Source: Epsilonproteobacteria bacterium 4484_65 (lineage in GTDB: Bacteria > Campylobacterota > Campylobacteria > Campylobacterales > Sulfurovaceae). From it: a stretch of 11,797 bases of DNA. The stretch spans positions 1 through 11,797 of the forward strand of contig NATJ01000013.1 of the NCBI GenBank assembly GCA_002085305.1, written 5' to 3'. Positions 1-7,725 of this stretch are shown in pieces; positions within the stretch are counted from its first letter, which is position 1, and every line of letters begins with the position of its first letter. The notes under the pieces were generated by a model. That model saw only the letters and a program-made list of their open reading frames with translations, was not told the origin of the DNA and ran no database searches. The position numbers were made by a program, and so were the translations under genes.

Positions 1-724
1 ATCCAATACCCATGCCCGTAGCTCCCATAGAACTTTTAACTACGTTCCCTGTGGCTATAGTATCTTGAGAGTACATAAAAAAGATGCCTACAGAATTAAA
101 TCTGTATTCATTGTCTCTTACAAGATTTTTACCTGCGTACATAAAATGCAAAGAGTACCTGCAGTGCTCTCCATAATTTTCTACAATATTATTACCGTGT
201 GAGTACCAAACAACCATATCCCTAGATTTGATCAATCTGTTTTTCTTAATGATATTATCATTACTATACCAGAGTCTTAGACCATCACCCCTAAGACCCA
301 GATCAACATCTTTTGATGTAATTGTATTGTTAGAAACTATAGAATTACTTACCTGCTGCATATCAATACCAAACAGACAGTCATCTATCACACAGTTACT
401 GATCTCGCATTGCTTGGCATTTGCTATGGTAATAGCGGCATCAAGTTGATGATGAAGATTTCCACTATTTGTTACTCTGAGATTTTTAAGTGTTACATAA
501 GAACTTTTTATAGAAATAACAGTTCCTGAACCACCACCATCTATGACTACACCTTTCTCTTTTCCTATAATAGTAAGAGGCTTAGTAATAACAATACTAC
601 CTTTATACACGCCGGCAGGAAGCTTGAGTATAGAACCGGCAGGTGCCTTATCTATAGCATCTTGCAGTACTGATGCAGTAAGTGCACTTAACAATGATAA
701 AAGGATTATTAACACTCTTATCAA
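1..724 (-). CDS. nosD: NosD, periplasmic copper-site maturation protein of N2O reductase (partial, C-terminus beyond window)
   Basis: The frame stays open from about 724 to the left edge, giving about 241 residues. The N-terminus is hydrophobic and signal-peptide-like (IRVLIILLSLLSALTASVL). It is followed by LQDAIDKAPAGSILKLPAGVYKG and IVITKPLTIIGKEKGVVIDGG, the entry to a right-handed parallel beta-helix. Repeating N/G-rich rungs follow (ISNCVIDDCLFGIDMQ, NIIKKNRLIKSRDMVVWYSHG, YSLHFMYAGKNLVRDN, SVGIFFMYSQDT), as in NosD/CASH carbohydrate-binding-like repeats. NosD is a periplasmic protein that works with the NosFY ABC transporter in assembling the CuZ centre of NosZ. Its place after nosB fits the Wolinella-type nos order. 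No ATG is available. TTG at 722-724 has AAAGG about 8 nt upstream, and GTG at 713-715 with GAAGAG upstream is the alternative. An in-frame TAG inside the upstream repeat rules out a longer start. The family call is firm; the start is uncertain. Confidence 0.85.
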   Translation of the reverse strand, partial: MIRVLIILLSLLSALTASVLQDAIDKAPAGSILKLPAGVYKGSIVITKPLTIIGKEKGVVIDGGGSGTVISIKSSYVTLKNLRVTNSGNLHHQLDAAITIANAKQCEISNCVIDDCLFGIDMQQVSNSIVSNNTITSKDVDLGLRGDGLRLWYSNDNIIKKNRLIKSRDMVVWYSHGNNIVENYGEHCRYSLHFMYAGKNLVRDNEYRFNSVGIFFMYSQDTIATGNVVKSSMGATGMGIG

Positions 725-737
725 CTCTTCAACCTTT

Positions 738-805
738 GTAGGGTGCGTTTGCTAACGCACCTTTTATTGTTTGGTTCTAAGGGTGCGTTAGCAAACGCAC
801 CCTAC
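738..805. repeat. Inverted pair of REP-like hairpin repeats (REPIN/BIME-like)
   Basis: A 24-bp unit at 738-761 (GTAGGGTGCG...AACGCACC) is repeated perfectly in inverted orientation at 782-805, with a 20-bp spacer. Each unit is itself a hairpin: GGTGCGTT pairs with AACGCACC around a 4-nt loop (TGCT or AGCA). The 5' foot is GTAG, the tetranucleotide typical of REP elements mobilised by RAYT (Y1-type, IS200/IS605-like) transposases. The element starts 5 bp after the nosB stop and ends 3 bp before the AAAGG ribosome-binding site of nosD. It therefore sits inside an apparent operon and would form strong RNA structure there. Assignment as a REPIN is by structure only; no RAYT gene is in the window. 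Confidence 0.8.
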
Positions 806-809
806 GCTT

Positions 810-1589
810 TTATTTTGTCTCTCTCATTGCTTTCTGTTTTGCAAAGAAAGCAAGCAGACTCAATAGACTGATCGCAACCAGCAGATAAAAACCTATCGTT
901 GGATACGAATGTGTCGTAAACTGTGCGATCTTCCCGTCACCAAAAACCGTAGGCATAAATGGTTTGATCTTAAATGCACCCCAGTCATGAAGGTTATGCC
1001 CAAACCAATAGAGCCAAAATGAATAATCTGCGATAAAGAGTAGTGGTAAAGAAACCGGTATAAGCATTAACAGATTTAGTATTTTTGAATCATACGCAAT
1101 GAACATGACTATGATCAGTGTTAACAGAAGAAGAGCATATGGTCCAATGGCTCTTTCAAAATGTCCTCCTACCCACATAGGATCCATCCCAACATAATGG
1201 TTAATAGTATTCATCTCATGCACTTCACCACTGTATCCGTCAAAGTGGAAAAAGACAGGAATTCCTTCAGGGAATGCCTCTTTAGGGTAATTGGGTGCTT
1301 CGAGTGAAACTGCCCAGATAGGTAAAGATGCTACACCTATTTCAGCAGATTCTTCAATCATTTTCATGAGATCATTATGTGCTTCTTTCGGTGTAGCTAC
1401 ACTCTTATATTGACCTTGATTGTAAAGATTCCAAACCTTTGCAGAAAATGGCGTTATCTCCTCTATTTTGCCTGCATCTATCTTATTGAGTACCCCATGA
1501 AATGAAACCATAGGGAAAGTAAAAGCAACAGTCAAAATAATCAAAGCTAACGCAGCAAAAATCTTTGCTTTGGTAAAACTTGGATGCAT
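810..1589 (-). CDS. nosB: NosB-like membrane protein of the clade II nos cluster
   Basis: This 259-residue protein has four predicted membrane segments: about 9-29, 149-167, 170-193 and 229-250. A roughly 115-residue loop after the first helix is probably periplasmic. It is the gene directly downstream of nosZ and upstream of nosD, the position of nosB in Wolinella and other clade II (Sec-dependent) nos clusters. Notable polar motifs are NHYVGM (about 130-135) and HDWGAF (201-206), followed by a T-H-S-Y-P stretch just before the last helix; the His/Met residues could matter for metal or electron transfer, but that is inference. The biochemical role of NosB is not well established. The ATG at 1587-1589 has AAAGGAG about 5 nt upstream. 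A separate Crp/Fnr-type promoter gives it a leader of only about 20 nt. The name rests on size, topology and synteny. Confidence 0.8.
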   Translation of the reverse strand: MHPSFTKAKIFAALALIILTVAFTFPMVSFHGVLNKIDAGKIEEITPFSAKVWNLYNQGQYKSVATPKEAHNDLMKMIEESAEIGVASLPIWAVSLEAPNYPKEAFPEGIPVFFHFDGYSGEVHEMNTINHYVGMDPMWVGGHFERAIGPYALLLLTLIIVMFIAYDSKILNLLMLIPVSLPLLFIADYSFWLYWFGHNLHDWGAFKIKPFMPTVFGDGKIAQFTTHSYPTIGFYLLVAISLLSLLAFFAKQKAMRETK

Positions 1590-1609: not shown

Positions 1610-1658
1610 ATCAATGATTATACCTAAATATTATTCAGAGTACATTGACAGGCGTCAA
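1610..1658 (-). promoter_or_regulatory. Class II Crp/Fnr-type promoter of nosB-nosD
   Basis: A perfect-arm palindrome TTGAC-AGGC-GTCAA lies at 1645-1658. Exactly 22 bp downstream on the minus strand is a perfect TATAAT at 1617-1622. This predicts a start site near 1610, with the box centred at -41.5, the standard class II Crp/Fnr activation geometry. The arms are identical to those of the box in front of nosZ. It implies that nosBD can be transcribed independently of nosZ. The regulator itself is not in the window. Confidence 0.75.
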
Positions 1659-1733
1659 GAAAAAAGTTTAGCTTATAAAAATAATAAGATTAGATAATAA
1701 TCGTATGGAAGATTTTTTGTGTATTTAAGAAGA

Positions 1734-1855
1734 TCAAAGGCTACAAACCTTTGATACTATTTTATATCGAAGATATTATGTGGCAAGACAACATGAGCCT
1801 GCTGCTGAAGCAGACACAGTGTCTAACGTAGTACATAGGGTAAATCCCTATGTAC
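1734..1855 (-). other. Cluster of five stem-loops between nosZ and nosB
   Basis: Reading from the nosZ stop on the minus strand there are five hairpins. The first is a 10-bp perfect stem at 1831-1855 (GTACATAGGG with CCCTATGTAC, 5-nt loop). Then come AGACAC/GTGTCT at 1812-1824, CTGC/GCAG at 1802-1813 (overlapping the previous one), ATATC/GATAT at 1764-1776, and a 7-bp stem at 1734-1754 (TCAAAGG/CCTTTGA). Only the last has even a weakly T-rich tail (TCTTCTTAAAT). The strong one begins 7 nt after the nosZ stop. They may act as a 3' stabiliser or partial terminator that sets nosZ mRNA above nosBD; this is inference. Confidence 0.5.
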
Positions 1856-1862
1856 GTCCTAT

Positions 1863-4457
1863 CTAAAATAAGTTGGCGTTTTCGTCAATCCATTTAAAAT
1901 ATTCTACAATATCTTTAACCTCTTCTTTATTCATATGTTGGTTAGGCATTTTAAGATTAAAGTAATCGATCATACCTTTCACATAAGGGTCTTTAAACAT
2001 TTTTTCCGGGTCTAAAATAAAATCAGAAACCCACTTCTCTGCATTTTCATGTCTTTGTAGTACACCTGTCAAGTCTGGACCTGAAGATACTTTACCTACA
2101 ACGTGACAACCAGAACATCCACCTTCATCAAAGGCTCTTGCACCTCTTTCTGCTGCCGGAGACTGTTTAGTTGCTATCTTCTTAACAAGAAGGTCTTTGG
2201 CTCTGATTCCAACATCTGCAGTTTTAACCATATATTGCCAGATCATATTTTCGAAAAGAATCGCTTTTTCCATATCTCCAGCTTTCACTGCAGCATCTGC
2301 TTTTGCTTTTTCTCCTTTGATCTGTCCGTACTGGTCAAGTGCATCAGTTACCAATTCAACAACAACCGGATATTTGTCATAGCCATTCTCTTTCAAGAAC
2401 TTAACAACTGACTGAATAACCTCATCAGTAGCGGCATTTACAGCAACTGTTTTGTCATACTCAGCTTTAAGCTGCTCTGGAGACATGGTTTGCATTTTAA
2501 GTTTTTGTGCAGACACATACTTTTTATTAGGATCTTTAACCATAAGGTAACCCATCATTTCCAAGTGAAGCGCTGAACAGAACTCTGTACAGTAATAAGG
2601 GAAAACACCTTCAATATCAGCTTCAAATTTGATAGTAGAAGTTTCACCCGGTTCGAGTGACATATGCACATCAAAGTGATCCACTGTAAATCCGTGAGTT
2701 TCATCTTCCGCTCTCTCAAGGTTAGTAATATGCATAATAACAGTATCACCTTTGTTAACCGTGATTCTTTCAGGGTTAATGTGAGAACGTACCATTGTTC
2801 CATAAACAGTAACTGTGTTTCCTTCTCTTACGATCTTCTCTTGACCTGCAAGTGTTTTACCTTTGTGTGGCTTACCAGTCTTCGTATTTGTACCCATTTT
2901 ATATCTTACATGCGGGTGTAGCTTTTCAGCTCTGATCGCAACCGCTTGGTGAGGTTCACCCAAAGGAATTGGCATATCATACAGAAGATCCATTTTCTTA
3001 CCACTTATATCAATCAACTGGTGATTTTGCGGGTGCAATGGTCCAACATTCTGAAATCTATCAATTGCAAGTTTATTCAATGAAATAATATACTTACCTT
3101 GAGGATCAGCAGATTTACCTTCCATACCACAAAGGTGTCCAACGTTATAGTGAACATTTTCTTTGTCAAGTACTTTCAGTGTTTTATAGTTCCATTTTAC
3201 AATTTGACTATCAACATAAAGTGAAGTATAGATCTCACCATCTACATTTGAGTACTGGTTATGTAAAGGCCCGAGACCCAACTCAACCTGACCATGCAGA
3301 GACTCTTTCATATCAAGAATAGGGATACCGTAAGGGTCTTTACCTACAAACTTCTTATCATCAATAAGTTTTTTGATCTTGCTCCATTTATAAACTGAAG
3401 CATGCGTATCTAGCTTACCACAAACTGTAATATATTCACCATCAGGAGAAACATCTACACCGTGAGGTGATTTTGGCTCAGGAATCAAGAATAGTGCATT
3501 ATTTGCAATAGATACATCCATAGGAACAATTCTATGTCCATTTACTACTTTAACATTTTTGTCATCTTTAGCAAGCTCTGCTAACTTTTCCCAGTTATAC
3601 ACATGTAAGAAGTCAGTATCATTTCTACTACAACCTGCTTCAAATGGTGGCATACCTACTTCGATACCCCCTGTATACATTTCAGAGTTAAATGAATTCG
3701 TGAAACCCCAACCGTGAGAAACACCCTTACCAGCATCACTCAAATCCTGCATATAAGGAGGTAATTCAATACTGAATGACTTATCTTCTTGAATTCTACC
3801 TATTTTAGAATCAAATTTCCACATAGTAATTGCACCACGATATGTCTCTTTGTACTCTTCTATAGGGTGATAGTTATTATCAAATGGCGCTGCATATTGA
3901 GAAGCTTCTATAATATACTCAGAGTTTTGAGTAAAGAACGCTCCACCATGGTCTGATTTCAAGATCGGGTTCACAACAATTTGTTTTGTTTCAAAATCCC
4001 CCAGATCGATAACACCAACTCTTGGATTGGCTTTATCGTTAATAACTAGCCATTTACCATCATACTTACCATCTACTTCAGAAAGTGCCGGGTGGTGAGT
4101 ATCTCCCCAATTGATCTCCCTACCTCTAATGTTACCTTGTCTAAGTACAGCTTTTGAATCTTCATCAAAACCATACCCTTGCCAAGGCTCAGGTGTAAAT
4201 ACTGCAATGTATTTTAAGATCTTCATCGATGGAACACCGTAAACTATCATTTGCCCAGATTGACCACCAGAACTAAAGATAACAAATTCGTCTCTACCAC
4301 CGGTAGGCAAATATGTTTTCGCTGCTCTAATAACATCACTCTCTGTTAAGCCTCTCTCTTTCATTATCTTCTCTAAAGTACCTGCACCAAAAGCTGTCGA
4401 CGCAGCTATTGCAGAACCCAGAAAAAGAGTTGAAAGTTTGTTTAACTTGTAATTCAT
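1863..4457 (-). CDS. nosZ: Nitrous oxide reductase, clade II (Sec-exported, C-terminal cytochrome c domain)
   Basis: This 864-residue periplasmic enzyme reduces N2O to N2 as the last step of denitrification. A Sec signal peptide (about 1-25, ending AFGA, no twin arginine) places it in clade II. The N-terminal beta-propeller carries the seven expected CuZ histidines: H121 and H122 (GDTHHP), H170 (SDHGG), H332 (SPHGVD), H399 (GPLHN), H441 (GHLCG) and H503 (EPHQ). The cupredoxin domain (about 540-640) holds the CuA set: H588 (THGF), C623 and C627 (CTEFC), H631 and M634. A fused monohaem cytochrome c domain (about 770-864) has C781-x-x-C784-H785, with M837 (KMPNQ) as the likely axial ligand. All key ligands are present, so the enzyme should be functional. 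The ATG at 4455-4457 is preceded by GGAGGAG at a 5-nt gap. Confidence 0.97.
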   Translation of the reverse strand: MNYKLNKLSTLFLGSAIAASTAFGAGTLEKIMKERGLTESDVIRAAKTYLPTGGRDEFVIFSSGGQSGQMIVYGVPSMKILKYIAVFTPEPWQGYGFDEDSKAVLRQGNIRGREINWGDTHHPALSEVDGKYDGKWLVINDKANPRVGVIDLGDFETKQIVVNPILKSDHGGAFFTQNSEYIIEASQYAAPFDNNYHPIEEYKETYRGAITMWKFDSKIGRIQEDKSFSIELPPYMQDLSDAGKGVSHGWGFTNSFNSEMYTGGIEVGMPPFEAGCSRNDTDFLHVYNWEKLAELAKDDKNVKVVNGHRIVPMDVSIANNALFLIPEPKSPHGVDVSPDGEYITVCGKLDTHASVYKWSKIKKLIDDKKFVGKDPYGIPILDMKESLHGQVELGLGPLHNQYSNVDGEIYTSLYVDSQIVKWNYKTLKVLDKENVHYNVGHLCGMEGKSADPQGKYIISLNKLAIDRFQNVGPLHPQNHQLIDISGKKMDLLYDMPIPLGEPHQAVAIRAEKLHPHVRYKMGTNTKTGKPHKGKTLAGQEKIVREGNTVTVYGTMVRSHINPERITVNKGDTVIMHITNLERAEDETHGFTVDHFDVHMSLEPGETSTIKFEADIEGVFPYYCTEFCSALHLEMMGYLMVKDPNKKYVSAQKLKMQTMSPEQLKAEYDKTVAVNAATDEVIQSVVKFLKENGYDKYPVVVELVTDALDQYGQIKGEKAKADAAVKAGDMEKAILFENMIWQYMVKTADVGIRAKDLLVKKIATKQSPAAERGARAFDEGGCSGCHVVGKVSSGPDLTGVLQRHENAEKWVSDFILDPEKMFKDPYVKGMIDYFNLKMPNQHMNKEEVKDIVEYFKWIDENANLF

Positions 4458-4567
4458 TTTCTCTCCTCCAAATAAATTTTAGAACCAATCTTAGGAGAAA
4501 TTTTCACCTTAGATCAACGCTCGTTTGATGTTATAATAATAATTTAAACTTATCATTATCATAAAAC
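4458..4567 (-). promoter_or_regulatory. nosZ 5' leader (about 110 nt)
   Basis: If transcription starts near 4568, nosZ has a leader of about 110 nt, against about 20 nt for nosB and tonB. Visible structure: arms ATCAA/TTGAT at 4513-4517 and 4525-4529, and AGGAGA at 4493-4498 (plus strand), which is complementary to TCTCCT at 4462-4467. On the transcript the latter pairing would mask part of the GGAGGAG ribosome-binding site through a 6-bp stem with a 25-nt loop. This is weak by itself. TTATCATTATC at 4550-4560 is a partial Fur-box look-alike. Confidence 0.3.
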
Positions 4568-4616
4568 ACTCCCAATTATAACTAAAAACTTAGAAATCTA
4601 ACTTGACATATGTCAA
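4568..4616 (-). promoter_or_regulatory. Class II Crp/Fnr-type promoter of nosZ
   Basis: The perfect 14-bp palindrome TTGACATATGTCAA at 4603-4616 is followed, 22 bp downstream on the minus strand, by a perfect TATAAT at 4575-4580. The predicted start is near 4568, with the box centred at -41.5. The arms TTGAC/GTCAA differ from the E. coli Fnr consensus (TTGAT/ATCAA) by one base each. They are identical to those of the nosB box, so the same protein should bind both. The regulator is expected to be a Crp/Fnr-family N-oxide or oxygen sensor; which one cannot be told from here. Confidence 0.8.
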
Positions 4617-4697
4617 TAATTTAACACTAATTTAACAATTGTATATATTTGGTGGTTTTTTCAGAACTAGAGAATATTTAGAGTTTTTTATATCACA

Positions 4698-4758
4698 GGA
4701 TGGAAGAATTCCACCTTTTTAGCAGTTATAGTACTTTCACAGGTGGATTATATCCACC
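4698..4758 (-). terminator. Two hairpins after the copper receptor gene, possible terminator
   Basis: Fourteen bases after the receptor stop, GGTGGAT/ATCCACC at 4742-4758 forms a perfect 7-bp stem with a 3-nt loop. Further downstream, 4698-4715 forms a second stem (TGGAA/TTCCA with flanking GG/CC and one bulge). Neither has a T-tract on the minus strand. The second is followed by TTTTT only in plus-strand orientation. They may partly insulate nosZ from upstream readthrough. Together with the nosZ promoter and leader they account for the gene-free stretch 4458-4771, where no other coding signal was seen. Confidence 0.4.
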
Positions 4759-4771
4759 CTTGTAAAGCATA

Positions 4772-6862
4772 CTAAAATTTATATTTTAGATTAGTATAAA
4801 CATATCTACCCGGCTCGTTCATCAGCATAACAGTATCATCTGGACCCGTTGGCATCAAAATTAGATCTTTATAGGTATTTGATACTGCATAGGTATTGTC
4901 AAATACATTATCTACTCCTATAACCAGTTCAAAATTCTTACCAAATCTCTTTGTTCCTCTAAGATTAAGTACAGCATACGCATCTAGCTCTTGCTCACCG
5001 TTCTCAACATCAATATTTGTCCAGTCATCAGCACCAAATAGTTCTGCTCTGAATGTTAAACTCTCATCCCAATCATAATTTGCTGCCAAATTCACTTTGA
5101 ATGGTGGGATCTCAGGCATATCAGTTCCTGTTTGTCCAGTTAAAGGATCATCTTTTTCTCCTATTTGGTATGCCATTCCATAATCAAAATAGAGGGAATC
5201 TGTTGCAATATAGGTACCACTTAACTCAAACCCATAGATCGTTGCATCTACATTTTCATATTGCCCTATAGTTGGATTTTTAGCAAAATTGTCATTATAA
5301 GCAATATAATTTTCCAGCATACTATAAAATGCTTTTGCTTTAAAAGTTGCATTATCAAAGGTCATTTCAACCCCAGCATCAAGCTCATAATTAATGGTTG
5401 CTTCAAGATCAGGAGTTCCTATTGGTTTAACAAACATTGTTCCATCAGGACGCTTCATAGGAGAGGACATCCAATAAAGTTCTTTAGCATCTGGCACTCT
5501 GGATGATTTTCCTGCACCGGCAAAAAACTTTGTATTGCTATCCATATGGTATGTTCCAAAAAGATATCCGTTTAATTCACTATAATCATTATTCTGTTGA
5601 TTTGGATTTTCTGAAGTAATAGTTGTATCATCATATCTTAAACCCATATCAAGAACAAGCTTATCCATTGTGATCTTATCTTTTAAGAAAAATGCAATAT
5701 TTTCAGTGTCAACATCCCAAATACTGTGATAAAACTTTTCAGGAAGAGGTTTACCATTTTTCAGGTATCCCCCATCCCAGTTACGTAAAGAATAATCTAT
5801 ACCGGCTGTAATTGTATGATTGTCAAGATCAAAACTATTTTTAATGTTTGCACCTTGCATTTTTGTTGTAAGGGCATGTGTCATCTCTGCCGCTTGCACT
5901 CCAGGCATCCCAGGATTACTATCCATTGCTGCCTTCTTTCTATACATCGTTGACATAGGATGCTCCACCTCTGTCTGATAGAGTTGTACATTAAGCTCTT
6001 TAGAGTATGTTCCAAGATCCTTTGCTGTATACTCTATATTGAAAATATCAGAATCATCAGAGATCGCATCCATTTTTGAAGAAGGATAAAGAATATCATC
6101 ACTCCTGTTAGCAGTATAACTCAGTCTTAGCTCCTGATTATCAGCAATATCCCAAAAAAGTTTTGCCATTAGTGTTTTTTTACTAAAAGCATCCATATCT
6201 TTGTATCTGTCTTGAAATTGAAAAGCAGGAAGAGCCTTTCCATCATCAATCTCACGTTGGATCTGGCCTGCAAAATCATTGCCGTCACCATCTTCATACT
6301 GTTCGCCTTCTTCTGCTGATCCACTGAGTAAAAACCTTACATTTTCTGCAATAGCACCACTGGCAGCAAAAGAAGCTTTTTTATATCCCCAGGATCCAAA
6401 ACCAAGGTTTACTTCACCTTCAAACTCATCTCCTGGTTTGATCGTGTGTATCTTTACATCTGCACTTAATACTCCAAAATCTTCTACATTATATGGCCCT
6501 TCATTGATCTCAATATAGTCAACATTGTTTGTTGCTACATGAGAGATGGGGGGATCCATTCTGTTTGGACATGCTCCACAAACTTTTGTTCCATCAATAG
6601 TCACATTAATATTGTCTCTTCTTTGTCCTCTCACAAAGATGTCATTAGCAATACCGGATCTTCTACTTAGTGTAACACTTGGTGACTGCTTAAAGAGTGC
6701 TTCTGCCAAGTCTGCCGACTTGATATCTTCCCCACTCACATCTTTGATAACTTCCGTATCTACTTTTGCTTCTACGTCTATGGTCCCCAACTCTACTTGT
6801 GCTGCCTGCAATGATAGCGCACATGCCAAAGAGAGATAGATCCCTTTTTTAATCCTTGTCAT
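4772..6862 (-). CDS. nosA: TonB-dependent outer-membrane copper receptor, NosA/OprC type
   Basis: This 696-residue protein has a signal peptide (about 1-21, cleavage near LQA-A), a plug domain (about 35-150) and a 22-strand-type barrel ending in F (YTNLKYKF), as outer-membrane proteins do. The plug has DIFVRGQRRDNINVTIDG followed by CGACPNRMDPP. C98-x3-M102 matches the CxxxM of the OprC copper site, and H301-P-M303 matches its HxM, so both halves of that site are present. C95 adds a CxxC not required by that model. NosA of Pseudomonas stutzeri is the founding member and is needed for copper-loaded NosZ. Position directly upstream of nosZ and downstream of tonB supports copper import for NosZ. 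The start is ATG 6860-6862, because GGAGGAG lies 5 nt before it; a GTG at 6896-6898 in the same frame lacks a ribosome-binding site. It is probably co-transcribed with tonB (60-nt gap). Confidence 0.88.
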   Translation of the reverse strand: MTRIKKGIYLSLACALSLQAAQVELGTIDVEAKVDTEVIKDVSGEDIKSADLAEALFKQSPSVTLSRRSGIANDIFVRGQRRDNINVTIDGTKVCGACPNRMDPPISHVATNNVDYIEINEGPYNVEDFGVLSADVKIHTIKPGDEFEGEVNLGFGSWGYKKASFAASGAIAENVRFLLSGSAEEGEQYEDGDGNDFAGQIQREIDDGKALPAFQFQDRYKDMDAFSKKTLMAKLFWDIADNQELRLSYTANRSDDILYPSSKMDAISDDSDIFNIEYTAKDLGTYSKELNVQLYQTEVEHPMSTMYRKKAAMDSNPGMPGVQAAEMTHALTTKMQGANIKNSFDLDNHTITAGIDYSLRNWDGGYLKNGKPLPEKFYHSIWDVDTENIAFFLKDKITMDKLVLDMGLRYDDTTITSENPNQQNNDYSELNGYLFGTYHMDSNTKFFAGAGKSSRVPDAKELYWMSSPMKRPDGTMFVKPIGTPDLEATINYELDAGVEMTFDNATFKAKAFYSMLENYIAYNDNFAKNPTIGQYENVDATIYGFELSGTYIATDSLYFDYGMAYQIGEKDDPLTGQTGTDMPEIPPFKVNLAANYDWDESLTFRAELFGADDWTNIDVENGEQELDAYAVLNLRGTKRFGKNFELVIGVDNVFDNTYAVSNTYKDLILMPTGPDDTVMLMNEPGRYVYTNLKYKF

Positions 6863-6922
6863 TGTAACTCCTCCAAAATATTTGAAGTAGTATGGCACGC
6901 TTATGTTAATTATGTGTTAAAC

Positions 6923-7657
6923 TTATTTAAGTTGGTAGTGAAGTGTGAGATTTACACTTGTTGGTAACGAAATAGGAATATTTCTAGTGTTTATAGGAAA
7001 AGCTTTTTTCACTGCATATCGTGCCGAATTATGAAATACTTTTGGTCCACTCACAGAAATGTGCCCCACATTACCATTTGCAAGAATAGTAAATCGTACT
7101 TTCACTTTACCTTGCATTCCTCTTCTTTTTGCTATTTTAGGGTAACTTTTATGTTGATTGATCTTTTGTCTTACTTTGGAAAGAAATTGATTTTTTTTGG
7201 CTGTACTATTTCTTGAGGTACCTGATCTTTTAAGCCCTTTGGTTGTTTTTGATGGTGCTTTTTTTCGTACTTTCTTTTTAATTTTCTTCTTTTTTACCTT
7301 TTTTTTCTTTTTTACTACAGGTTTTTTTTCAACTATAGGTTTAGGAACGATCTTTGGTTCTATGGGTTTTGGTATGATCTTTTCTGGAATTGACTTTTCT
7401 TCAACGATAGGTTCAGGCTCAGGTTCTTCTATGATCTCTTCTTCAACGACAGGTTCTTCTTTTTCTATCTCTTCAGGTTCTTCCACAGGAGGTACAACTT
7501 CCTGAACACAGGTAGAGAGGGAAAGGTGTATGGTCTGGTCTTGTGGCTTTTGATCTGCGATAAGGTACTGGTACTGTACGTAAAAGTAAGTCCCCGCCAA
7601 CAGAAGGTAAAAGAGTGTTGTACTAAAGTAAGAAATCAGATAACGATGTTTAAACAC
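6923..7657 (-). CDS. tonB: TonB-family energy transducer
   Basis: This 244-residue protein (GTG start) has one N-terminal membrane anchor (about 6-28). An acidic Pro/Glu linker (about 54-90) is followed by Pro/Lys segments and a very basic run (about 111-133, mostly Lys with Val, Ile, Arg). The C-terminal TonB domain (about 162-244) shows YPKIAKRRGMQGKVKVRFTI and ends LTLHYQLK. TonB couples inner-membrane proton-motive force, through ExbB/ExbD, to outer-membrane receptors. No exbBD is in the window, so it must use partners encoded elsewhere. Lying 60 nt upstream of the copper receptor, it is probably dedicated to it. GTG 7655-7657 has AAAAGGG 5 nt upstream and sits 19 nt after the predicted start site. 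The longer in-frame TTG at 7691-7693 has no ribosome-binding site and lies upstream of that start site. Confidence 0.88.
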   Translation of the reverse strand: MFKHRYLISYFSTTLFYLLLAGTYFYVQYQYLIADQKPQDQTIHLSLSTCVQEVVPPVEEPEEIEKEEPVVEEEIIEEPEPEPIVEEKSIPEKIIPKPIEPKIVPKPIVEKKPVVKKKKKVKKKKIKKKVRKKAPSKTTKGLKRSGTSRNSTAKKNQFLSKVRQKINQHKSYPKIAKRRGMQGKVKVRFTILANGNVGHISVSGPKVFHNSARYAVKKAFPINTRNIPISLPTSVNLTLHYQLK

Positions 7658-7676
7658 AACATCCCTTTTATTTAGA

Positions 7677-7725
7677 GTTTTGAAGTCTAGCAAAGATATG
7701 TTAAAAAAATGTTAATTTAAATCAA
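7677..7725 (-). promoter_or_regulatory. Class II Crp/Fnr-type promoter of tonB-nosA
   Basis: On the minus strand TTGAT-TTAA-ATTAA (7712-7725) matches the Fnr consensus TTGAT-N4-ATCAA at 9 of 10 arm positions. TAGACT at 7684-7689 is a -10-like hexamer exactly 22 bp downstream. The geometry is the same as at nosZ and nosB, with a predicted start near 7677. The box and -10 are weaker than the other two in this AT-rich spacer, so the shared spacing is the main support. Confidence 0.5.

What the first reader, a model, noticed from the sequence alone, without database searches (positions are those of the whole stretch)
1610..7725. Three promoters with identical Crp/Fnr box-to--10 spacing tie copper import to N2O reductase
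Boxes at 4603-4616 (TTGACATATGTCAA), 1645-1658 (TTGACAGGCGTCAA) and 7712-7725 (TTGATTTAAATTAA, minus strand) each lie exactly 22 bp upstream of a -10 hexamer (TATAAT, TATAAT, TAGACT), giving class II -41.5 geometry. This puts tonB-nosA, nosZ and nosB-nosD under one apparent regulator. The arms TTGAC/GTCAA differ from both the Fnr consensus and the TTAAC/GTTAA reported for NssR, which suggests a distinct Crp/Fnr paralogue.
Basis: partly seen in the sequence, partly recalled or inferred. Interest (0 to 1): 0.72.

Follow-up and report, generated by a model that had tools for sequence, protein, structure and literature searches.

The report
Two promoter codes at nos locus
In a Sulfurovum-like bacterium the genes that destroy the greenhouse gas N2O carry a known type of nitrogen-oxide switch, while the neighbouring copper-import genes carry a different, apparently undescribed DNA switch, so copper supply and N2O removal look wired separately, with a possible overlap at one promoter.

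Summary
All three boxes and their 22-bp spacings are in the sequence. Two hold up strongly. nosZ and nosB carry class II TTGAY-N4-RTCAA boxes, conserved in most relatives examined. The 22-bp geometry dominates across the family (31 of 49 matches) and recurs before hcp, nrdD, Rieske and napF-like genes. Arms vary between TTGAC and TTGAT in orthologous promoters, and TTGA-N6-TCAA is the published consensus for Wolinella Nss-type regulators, so no distinct TTGAC paralogue is needed.

The third box (tonB) is mainly a different element. Its right arm is the first half of a direct repeat, TTAAC-N6-TTAAC-N10-YANAMT, found only three times in the 1.13-Mb MAG: before tonB, nosA and exbB-exbD. It is conserved at tonB/nosA promoters with or without nosZ nearby, and in relatives also precedes NosL-, MbnP- and CcsBA-like genes. 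The receptor keeps the four OprC copper ligands. An OmpR-family two-component pair encoded near tonB-nosA is the best regulator candidate (unproven).

The 22-bp coincidence at tonB follows from the repeat's geometry. Yet a TTGATT arm completing a half-box stands in 7 of 10 assessable nosZ-linked loci and at no other tonB promoter seen, so dual control remains possible.

The parts
4603..4616 (-). Crp/Fnr (Nss/Dnr-type) box of nosZ, TTGACATATGTCAA, centred at about -41.5
   Evidence: TTGA-N6-TCAA in 53 of 78 relatives' nosZ upstream regions
4575..4580 (-). nosZ -10 element TATAAT, 22 bp after the box
   Evidence: 22-bp spacing conserved
1645..1658 (-). Crp/Fnr box of nosB-nosD, TTGACGCCTGTCAA
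   Evidence: 39 of 65 nosB upstream regions hold TTGA-N6-TCAA, 37 of 65 with N22-TANNNT
1617..1622 (-). nosB -10 element TATAAT, 22 bp after the box
7684..7715 (-). tonB direct-repeat promoter TTAAC-N6-TTAAC-N10-TAGACT
   Evidence: one of 3 such sites in the MAG
7712..7725 (-). The finding's third box TTGATTTAAATTAA; its last TTAA is the first repeat of the direct-repeat operator; the TTGATT arm (7720-7725) is seen before tonB only in loci counted as nosZ-linked
6889..6920 (-). nosA direct-repeat promoter TTAAC-N6-TTAAC-N10-CATACT
1863..4457 (-). nosZ, Sec-dependent clade II nitrous-oxide reductase with cytochrome c domain
   Evidence: TIGR04246 882.7 bits over cut-off 625; Cytochrom_C
810..1589 (-). 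nosB-like membrane protein gene (named by position and by homologues 59-84% identical in 65 of 80 nos loci; no family model matched)
2..724 (-). nosD, cut off by the contig end
   Evidence: PF05048; TIGR04247 255.2 bits, below its cut-off of 300
4772..6862 (-). NosA/OprC-like TonB-dependent receptor with CxxxM-HxM copper ligands C116, M120, H319, M321
6923..7657 (-). tonB, GTG start at 7657 preferred because the upstream TTG start at 7693 lies at the -10 element
   Evidence: PF03544, TIGR01352

Best explanation
The locus carries two promoter codes. (1) nosZ and nosB-nosD each have a class II activator site, TTGAY-N4-RTCAA centred at about -41.5 and 22 bp upstream of a TATAAT -10, read by a Dnr/Nss-type Crp/Fnr activator. 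In this family it serves a regulon of nitrogen-oxide and anaerobic genes (shown: sites, geometry, conservation and neighbouring genes; inferred: binding, activation, signal). (2) tonB, nosA and the distant exbB-exbD each have a tandem direct repeat TTAAC-N6-TTAAC ending 10 bp upstream of the -10, the geometry of an OmpR/PhoB-type response-regulator operator that replaces the -35. It most likely induces TonB-dependent copper uptake and copper-enzyme assembly genes when copper is short (shown: element, spacing, gene set, copper ligands; inferred: regulator, signal, sign). The best-placed regulator is the OmpR-family response regulator/histidine kinase pair (RR1-HK1) near tonB-nosA in many relatives. 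The finding's third box is mainly this second code; its 22-bp spacing is C + N6 + TTAAC + N10.
For: Code 1: 31 of 49 at 22 bp; 5 of 5 at 22 in the MAG; nosZ 41 of 78 and nosB 37 of 65 with box-N22-TANNNT; shuffles 0.1 and 0.0; downstream genes: hybrid cluster protein, NapF-like below its cut-off, NrdD, hemerythrin, Rieske; a Crp/Fnr gene itself at spacing 25; Crp/Fnr gene immediately upstream of the nosZ box, there at 23 bp, in G025 and G051; Crp/Fnr fragment before NorCB-like genes in the MAG. Published parallel: exact TTGA-N6-TCAA boxes 48-49 nt before the TSS of napA, norE and nosB in Nitrosophilus labii (PMC11539149). Code 2: only 3 sites in the MAG: tonB, nosA and C57; the C57 site precedes exbB-exbD; 83 matches in 41 genus genomes, 63 at spacing 10; reversed control 4; 34 of 35 repeat/-10 pairs before tonB and 33 of 39 before nosA at spacing 10; NosL, MbnP/MbnH, ResB-like just below cut-off, DUF2202, ExbB; CxxxM-HxM: C 66, M 68, H 69, M 69 of 69 receptors; receptor in 108 of 150 family genomes, nosZ in 62 of 150, so the receptor is not tied to nosZ. 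RR1.
Against: 25 of 78 nosZ and 26 of 65 nosB upstream regions lack an exact TTGA-N6-TCAA, so the code is not universal. 22 of 69 nosA loci show no strict direct repeat in the up to 1.5 kb scanned, 13 of them from other genera and 9 from the genus. G132 has a perfect repeat at nosA but no RR1 orthologue was found; G096 lacks RR1 and shows no repeat. RR1-HK1 follows a FabG-like gene (named by eye) in most loci read, so its nearness to tonB may be an inherited neighbourhood. Direct-repeat matches also precede genes with no evident copper link (MoxR-type ATPase, NLPC/P60-domain protein, methyltransferases by eye). A TTGATT arm at the right place upstream of tonB in 7 of 10 assessable nosZ-linked loci favours some Crp/Fnr input. 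For P. stutzeri one nosA knockout left NosZ activity and copper unchanged, and OprC occurs in non-denitrifiers (PMC8610252), so the receptor's role in NosZ maturation is uncertain. Nothing was measured here: no transcript, binding or copper data.
Confidence: 0.74

Rival explanations
1. One reading: one Crp/Fnr paralogue specific for TTGAC-N4-GTCAA arms activates tonB-nosA, nosZ and nosB-nosD alike.
For: Exact 22-bp spacing at all three; TTGATT-N3-ATTAA upstream of tonB in 7 of 10 assessable nosZ-linked loci and at no other tonB promoter seen, in lineages scattered on the receptor tree.
Against: The tonB right arm is ATTAA in all 7 of those loci; a scan that also allowed TCAA found no exact TTGA-N6-TCAA with a -10 before tonB in any locus, only the nosZ box of L218. 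Unlinked loci keep the direct repeat without the TTGATT arm. Arms interchange in orthologous nosZ/nosB promoters. nosA has its own repeat promoter.
Confidence: 0.12
2. The TTGAC boxes are ordinary sigma-70 -35 hexamers (TTGACA, TTGACG) and not regulator sites.
For: A consensus scan finds TTGACG-17-AATAAT at the nosB box.
Against: 28 promoter-like hits against 29.4 expected in shuffles. Both palindrome arms and a 22-bp, not 17-bp, distance to TATAAT are conserved. Control palindromes with other arms or gaps occur in 0-5 loci against 53 and 39.
Confidence: 0.04
3. The direct repeat is the site of another OmpR-family regulator (the second pair RR2-HK2, a PhoB/PhosR-type or an orphan regulator), or its regulon senses something other than copper (redox, phosphate, envelope stress).
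For: G132 has the repeat without a detectable RR1. RR2-HK2 also lies near tonB in several relatives and on MAG contig C89. Several genes without a copper link carry the repeat in relatives.
Against: RR1 occurs in 40 of 42 genus genomes and lies within 12 kb of nosA in 27 of the 28 genomes where both are on one contig. The pair stands directly upstream of nosZ in three genomes whose nosA is on another contig. No phosphate-uptake gene was recognised by eye among the first genes of the 40 loci read.
Confidence: 0.4

Closest known systems
Nss regulators of Wolinella succinogenes (NssA/B/C) and the predicted Crp/Fnr sites of Nitrosophilus labii (PMC11539149)
   Same: TTGA-N6-TCAA consensus, nosB box with its first base 48 nt before the TSS (= centre -41.5), nosZ and accessory nos genes as separate units, a Crp/Fnr gene upstream of the nor cluster
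   Different: In N. labii, boxes overlapping the predicted TSS are reported at nosZ; here nosZ has a clean class II site. No tonB-nosA link appears in the sections read
DNR of denitrifying proteobacteria (TTGATnnnnATCAA; PMC1274295)
   Same: FNR-like box on nir, nor and nos genes; E-x-x-S-R recognition helix (the DNR helix is recalled)
   Different: Different phylum; both TTGAC and TTGAT arms used here; orthology not tested
NssR of Campylobacter jejuni (TTAACnnnnGTTAA, A180/Q181; PMC1274295)
   Same: Crp/Fnr family in the same phylum
   Different: Different arms and a different recognition helix from the MAG's S-P-E-T-L-S-R; the TTAAC in this window is a direct, not an inverted, repeat
PhoB/OmpR-type operators (Pho box; DccR of C. 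jejuni, both geometries recalled)
   Same: Two direct repeats in 11-bp register ending about 10 bp before the -10, in place of the -35
   Different: Repeat sequence TTAAC; TonB/copper gene set; regulator not identified
NosA/OprC copper-importing TonB-dependent transporters (PMC8610252)
   Same: CxxxM-HxM ligands conserved; P. stutzeri NosA is also repressed by copper and made anaerobically
   Different: Scores 165.9 bits against the 472.45 cut-off of TIGR01778; encoded with its own tonB beside clade II nosZ

Membership tests
Nss/Dnr-type Crp/Fnr regulon | TTGA-N6-TCAA boxes upstream of denitrification genes | tested here: met
   nosZ 53 of 78, nosB 39 of 65, shuffles 0.7 and 0.3; both exact in the window
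Nss/Dnr-type Crp/Fnr regulon | Class II position, box centre about -41.5 relative to the start | tested here: inconclusive
   22-bp box to -10 spacing conserved; the start itself was not measured
Nss/Dnr-type Crp/Fnr regulon | A Crp/Fnr activator with E-x-x-S-R recognition helix in the genome | tested here: met
   Truncated gene on C17 with HTH_Crp_2 and SPETLSR, before NorCB-like genes; the MAG is 72% complete
Nss/Dnr-type Crp/Fnr regulon | Orthology of that protein to NssA, NssB, NssC or Dnr | not tested
   Named Nss/Dnr sequences were not compared; best identity of the fragment to 19 motif-selected family proteins is 49% (L164)
NssR (C. jejuni) sites | TTAAC-N4-GTTAA inverted repeat | tested here: not met
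   nosZ/nosB boxes are TTGAC-N4-GTCAA; the tonB/nosA TTAAC elements are direct repeats
NosA/OprC copper receptors | CxxxM-HxM copper ligands | tested here: met
   C116, M120, H319, M321 in the window protein; 66, 68, 69 and 69 of 69 receptors; OprC is the best PDB match
NosA/OprC copper receptors | NCBIfam TIGR01778 equivalog score | tested here: not met
   165.9 bits against cut-off 472.45, so described as OprC-like, not filed as an equivalog
OmpR/PhoB-type direct-repeat operator | Two direct repeats at 11-bp period ending about 10 bp upstream of -10 | tested here: met
   34 of 35 (tonB) and 33 of 39 (nosA) pairs at spacing 10 when 5-15 was allowed
OmpR/PhoB-type direct-repeat operator | Binding by an OmpR-family response regulator | not testable with these tools
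   Only gene linkage is available

The most novel reading that the evidence does not exclude
Where tonB-nosA has become joined to nosZ, the tonB promoter has gained a TTGATT half-site overlapping the TTAAC direct repeat, so that a nitrogen-oxide-sensing Crp/Fnr protein and a copper-sensing OmpR-type regulator meet on one promoter. Copper import would then be induced only, or most, when copper is short and N2O respiration is on.
Probability: 0.27. Interest if true: 0.68.

Novelty: new variant of a known kind. Interest (0 to 1): 0.52.

Why it matters
N2O reductase needs copper, and environmental N2O emission is thought to depend on copper supply (recalled). How clade II N2O reducers of the Campylobacterota obtain copper and time its uptake is little covered in the papers I could search. 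This locus offers two predicted and separable switches, one for nitrogen oxides and one for a TonB-ExbBD-receptor copper route, plus a candidate two-component system, all testable in cultured Sulfurovum or Sulfurimonas relatives.

Tried and rejected
Distinct TTGAC-specific paralogue: rejected because arms interchange among orthologous promoters. Third box as a plain Crp/Fnr site: rejected as the main element. Sigma-70 -35 reading of TTGACA: the scan is at chance level. Finding a full-length Crp/Fnr regulator in the MAG: the PF00027 search hit only a 623-aa open frame that I did not pursue, PF13545 only a truncated gene. Pho-box reading: the passages shown of the Pho review gave no C. jejuni consensus, and no phosphate-uptake gene was recognised by eye among the first genes of the 40 repeat loci read. 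DccR box: recalled, and a library search found no paper. RNA fold at the nosB leader: nothing. No paper describing a TTAAC direct-repeat or copper TonB regulon in Campylobacterota stood in the listings of the searches; I opened only some of the listed papers, and most papers of subscription journals are absent from the library.

Limits and dropped rows: 2 of 80 nosZ loci had under 150 bp upstream and 15 of 80 loci had no nosB match. One receptor fragment (L218) was dropped. Of the 58 rows not flagged as nosZ-linked, six (L092, L100, L205, L207, L211, L222) end within 400 bp after nosA, so their linkage is unknown, and in a number of them no tonB was recognised. In one search I kept only Crp/Fnr proteins that match a recognition-helix pattern (19 of 29 loci printed; the other ten were not examined), so that call cannot show how common the helix is. 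One search's match list was cut by the tool and was not used for counts. Of the 49 matches, 37 were read with their downstream genes (34 regions). From I fetched 40 regions, leaving out most sites already seen at tonB/nosA and some repeats.
Full report
What was checked. The three boxes and spacings are exact. All lie on the minus strand: nosZ box 4603-4616 with TATAAT at 4575-4580; nosB box 1645-1658 with TATAAT at 1617-1622; tonB box 7712-7725 with TAGACT at 7684-7689. The genes were identified by family scans: Sec-dependent clade II NosZ with a cytochrome c domain, NosD (cut by the contig end), TonB, a TonB-dependent receptor, an MltB-type transglycosylase (plus strand) and an RND pump cut by the other contig end. 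NosB has no family model and is named by position and by homologues 59-84% identical in 65 of 80 nos loci. The window is contig C76 of a 1.127-Mb, 72%-complete MAG.

Chance. TTGACN4GTCAA is found at 3 sites in the MAG; the reversed-letter control gives 2, so the number is unremarkable. Two of the 3 are these promoters; the third lies inside a MoaA-like gene. The geometry is the strong part. With TTGAYN4RTCAA and TATAAT 17-27 bp further on, the MAG has 5 matches, all at exactly 22 bp, control 0. Three of them lie elsewhere: before a Rieske protein gene, about 120 nt before a NifS-like class V aminotransferase gene, and in a region where I could not assign a clear target. Over 150 genomes of the family, TTGACN4GTCAA-N{14,30}-TATAAT gives 49 matches: 31 at 22, 5 at 21, 5 at 23, and one each at eight other spacings; the reversed control gave one match.

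Conservation at nos. From 80 named, mostly Campylobacterota-labelled nos loci, 78 have at least 150 bp before nosZ and 65 have a nosB match with that much upstream. TTGA-N6-TCAA occurs within 200 bp of the start in 53 of 78 (nosZ) and 39 of 65 (nosB); dinucleotide shuffles average 0.7 and 0.3. Control palindromes with other arms or with gaps of 5 or 7 occur in 0-2 loci for nosZ and 0-5 for nosB; the highest, TTGA-N5-TCAA before nosB, is 5 of 65 where shuffles reach at most 2. Box-N22-TANNNT: 41 of 78 and 37 of 65. Some nosZ promoters, several of them labelled Sulfurovum, use 23 bp instead. Arms: nosZ 34 TTGAC..GTCAA, 10 TTGAT..ATCAA, 9 mixed; nosB 7, 15, 16, plus 2 others. The C/T and G/A choice is therefore free within one promoter family, which removes the argument for a separate TTGAC-reading paralogue.

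Regulon and regulator of the first code. The genes following 37 of the 49 family-wide matches include hybrid cluster protein, a NapF-like ferredoxin, NrdD, a hemerythrin, NosB and NosZ, a DUF2249-like protein, an FmdE-like protein and, at spacing 25, a Crp/Fnr protein (the NapF, DUF2249 and FmdE scores are below curated cut-offs). The MAG's only Crp/Fnr gene found is a fragment at the start of contig C17, followed by a 107-aa gene and NorCB-like genes (named by eye; COX1 superfamily by Pfam), with the helix SPETLSR. In G025 and G051 a full Crp/Fnr gene stands directly before the nosZ box and nosZ, with 23-bp spacing. In print: Nitrosophilus labii boxes to the consensus TTGA-N6-TCAA lie 48-49 nt before the napA, norE and nosB starts (PMC11539149, sections 15 and 19 read). 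NssA/B/C mediate nitrate, NO and N2O responses of nap, nrf and nos in Wolinella (PMC6682613 and PMC8139620, passages). NssR of C. jejuni reads TTAACnnnnGTTAA with A180/Q181, DNR reads TTGATnnnnATCAA, and TTGACnnnnGTCAA sites are predicted before hcp or norB in two cyanobacteria (PMC1274295, passages). The nosZ/nosB promoters are a new member of this known kind.

The third box is mainly something else. I read the tonB upstream regions of 13 loci treated as nosZ-linked (some are duplicates of one genome) and 18 treated as unlinked. By eye, 18 of the 31 show a clear TTAAC (or TTAAT)-N6-TTAAC-N10-(-10) before tonB, 6 show a decayed or half one, and in 7 tonB follows an exbD-like gene with no room for a promoter. 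In the MAG the pattern (N8-12, YANAMT) occurs 3 times only, all at spacing 10: before tonB (7684-7715), before nosA (6889-6920) and at C57:974-1005. The last precedes exbB-exbD (family scans of the equivalents in L281). In 41 genus genomes (YATAMT, N5-15) there are 83 matches, 63 at spacing 10, reversed control 4. In 69 receptor loci, repeat/-10 pairs are at spacing 10 in 34 of 35 cases in the tonB region and 33 of 39 in the nosA region; 47 of 69 loci have at least one at 9-11. The finding's box is TTGATT + NNN + ATTAA, whose TTAA is the first repeat, and C + N6 + TTAAC + N10 makes exactly 22. The coincidence with the other two promoters is thus accounted for by the repeat. The receptor is also not tied to nosZ: 108 of 150 family genomes have it and 62 of 150 have nosZ, and only 3 of the 80 named nosZ loci, many on short contigs, show tonB-nosA alongside.

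TTGATT-N3-ATTAA is present in 7 of 11 rows flagged nosZ-linked (7 of 10 with enough upstream sequence). Of the 58 other rows, one has a partial match, inside the tonB coding region and without the ATTAA arm; six of the 58 have unknown linkage. One of the 7 (L199) has an insertion that breaks the 22-bp spacing. One of the 7 (L223) is counted as linked because the other half of what I take to be the same receptor gene lies before nosZ on another contig. On a receptor tree the linked rows with the arm fall in several separate places. A functional half-site joined to the repeat in nosZ-linked loci is therefore a fair possibility, not shown.

The copper link. The receptor's best PDB relatives are OprC chains. 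The ligands C143, M147, H323 and M325 of OprC (PMC8610252, passages) correspond to C116, M120, H319 and M321 here; the H-x-M pair rests on a low-scoring aligned stretch. They are kept in 66, 68, 69 and 69 of 69 receptors. The NCBIfam copper-receptor equivalog cut-off is not reached. The same paper notes that P. stutzeri NosA is anaerobically expressed and copper-repressed, but also that one nosA knockout did not change NosZ and that OprC occurs in non-denitrifiers. In relatives the repeat also precedes NosL-domain genes (one at spacing 10, two at 8), an MbnP-MbnH pair, ResB/CcsBA-like genes (one at 10, two at 11; score just below the Pfam cut-off on a 110-residue piece), DUF2202 genes and exbB. 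It also precedes genes without a clear copper link: a MoxR-type ATPase, an NLPC/P60-domain protein and methyltransferases (by eye).

Candidate regulator. An OmpR-family response regulator and histidine kinase pair lies next to tonB-nosA in many relatives; in G003 the order is RR-HK-exbB-exbD-tonB-nosA. An orthologue at 61% identity or more is in 40 of 42 genus genomes tested, 67% in the MAG. It lies within 12 kb of nosA in 27 of the 28 genomes where both are on one contig; in 12 of the 40 this could not be judged. The pair stands directly before nosZ in G073, G142 and G136. Against: G132 has the repeat but no such orthologue was found (G096 lacks both); the pair follows a FabG-like gene in most loci read; a second pair (RR2-HK2) lies close by in several. 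On MAG contig C89 the two pairs are followed by OEP and HlyD-type genes and what reads as the start of an RND pump. The window's RND pump lacks about its first hundred residues at the contig end, so C89 probably adjoins the window; this is inference.

Verdict. The more interesting result is the second, direct-repeat code on tonB, nosA and exbBD, for which I found no description with the searches named in Tried and rejected.

Noticed in passing
L179 (G000:C13:916-957, minus): The same box-22-TATAAT promoter precedes a Rieske protein gene with a cytochrome b-like gene (by eye) after it; a Rieske/cytochrome bc complex is required for clade II N2O respiration in Wolinella according to a reference title seen.
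   Followed up: partly
L318 and L319 (G025:C11, G051:C57): A Crp/Fnr gene sits between a CobA-like methyltransferase gene (by eye) and nosZ, directly upstream of the nosZ box; a natural place to look for the nosZ activator.
   Followed up: partly
L006, L009, L010, L012, L073, L076, L078, L081: These nosZ promoters keep a perfect TATAAT but at 23 bp, not 22, from the box; a class II activator normally tolerates a shift poorly (recalled).
   Followed up: no
L241, L243 and similar (one search matches of 27 nt): A variant of the direct repeat with only 5 bp to the -10 recurs (7 of 83 matches); in the two loci read it precedes a DsbD_2-type membrane protein gene.
   Followed up: no
L228, L229, L236: A near-invariant promoter TTAACYTTCAATTAAC-N10-TATACT precedes a MoxR-type ATPase gene in several genomes; no evident copper link.
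   Followed up: no
window 740-803: Two similar 24-nt hairpins (AGGGTGCGTTWGCWAACGCACC type) between nosD and nosB; terminator-like by the scan, perhaps a repeat element.
   Followed up: no
L199 upstream of tonB (G024): An inserted hairpin-like stretch (TATGGGCA...TGCCCAT) splits the tonB direct repeat in one closed genome while its relative G042 (L200) lacks it.
   Followed up: no
L313 (G000:C89:5047-11844): Two two-component pairs, two small cytochrome-like genes (by eye), then OEP, HlyD-type and RND genes; probably continuous with the right end of the window.
   Followed up: partly
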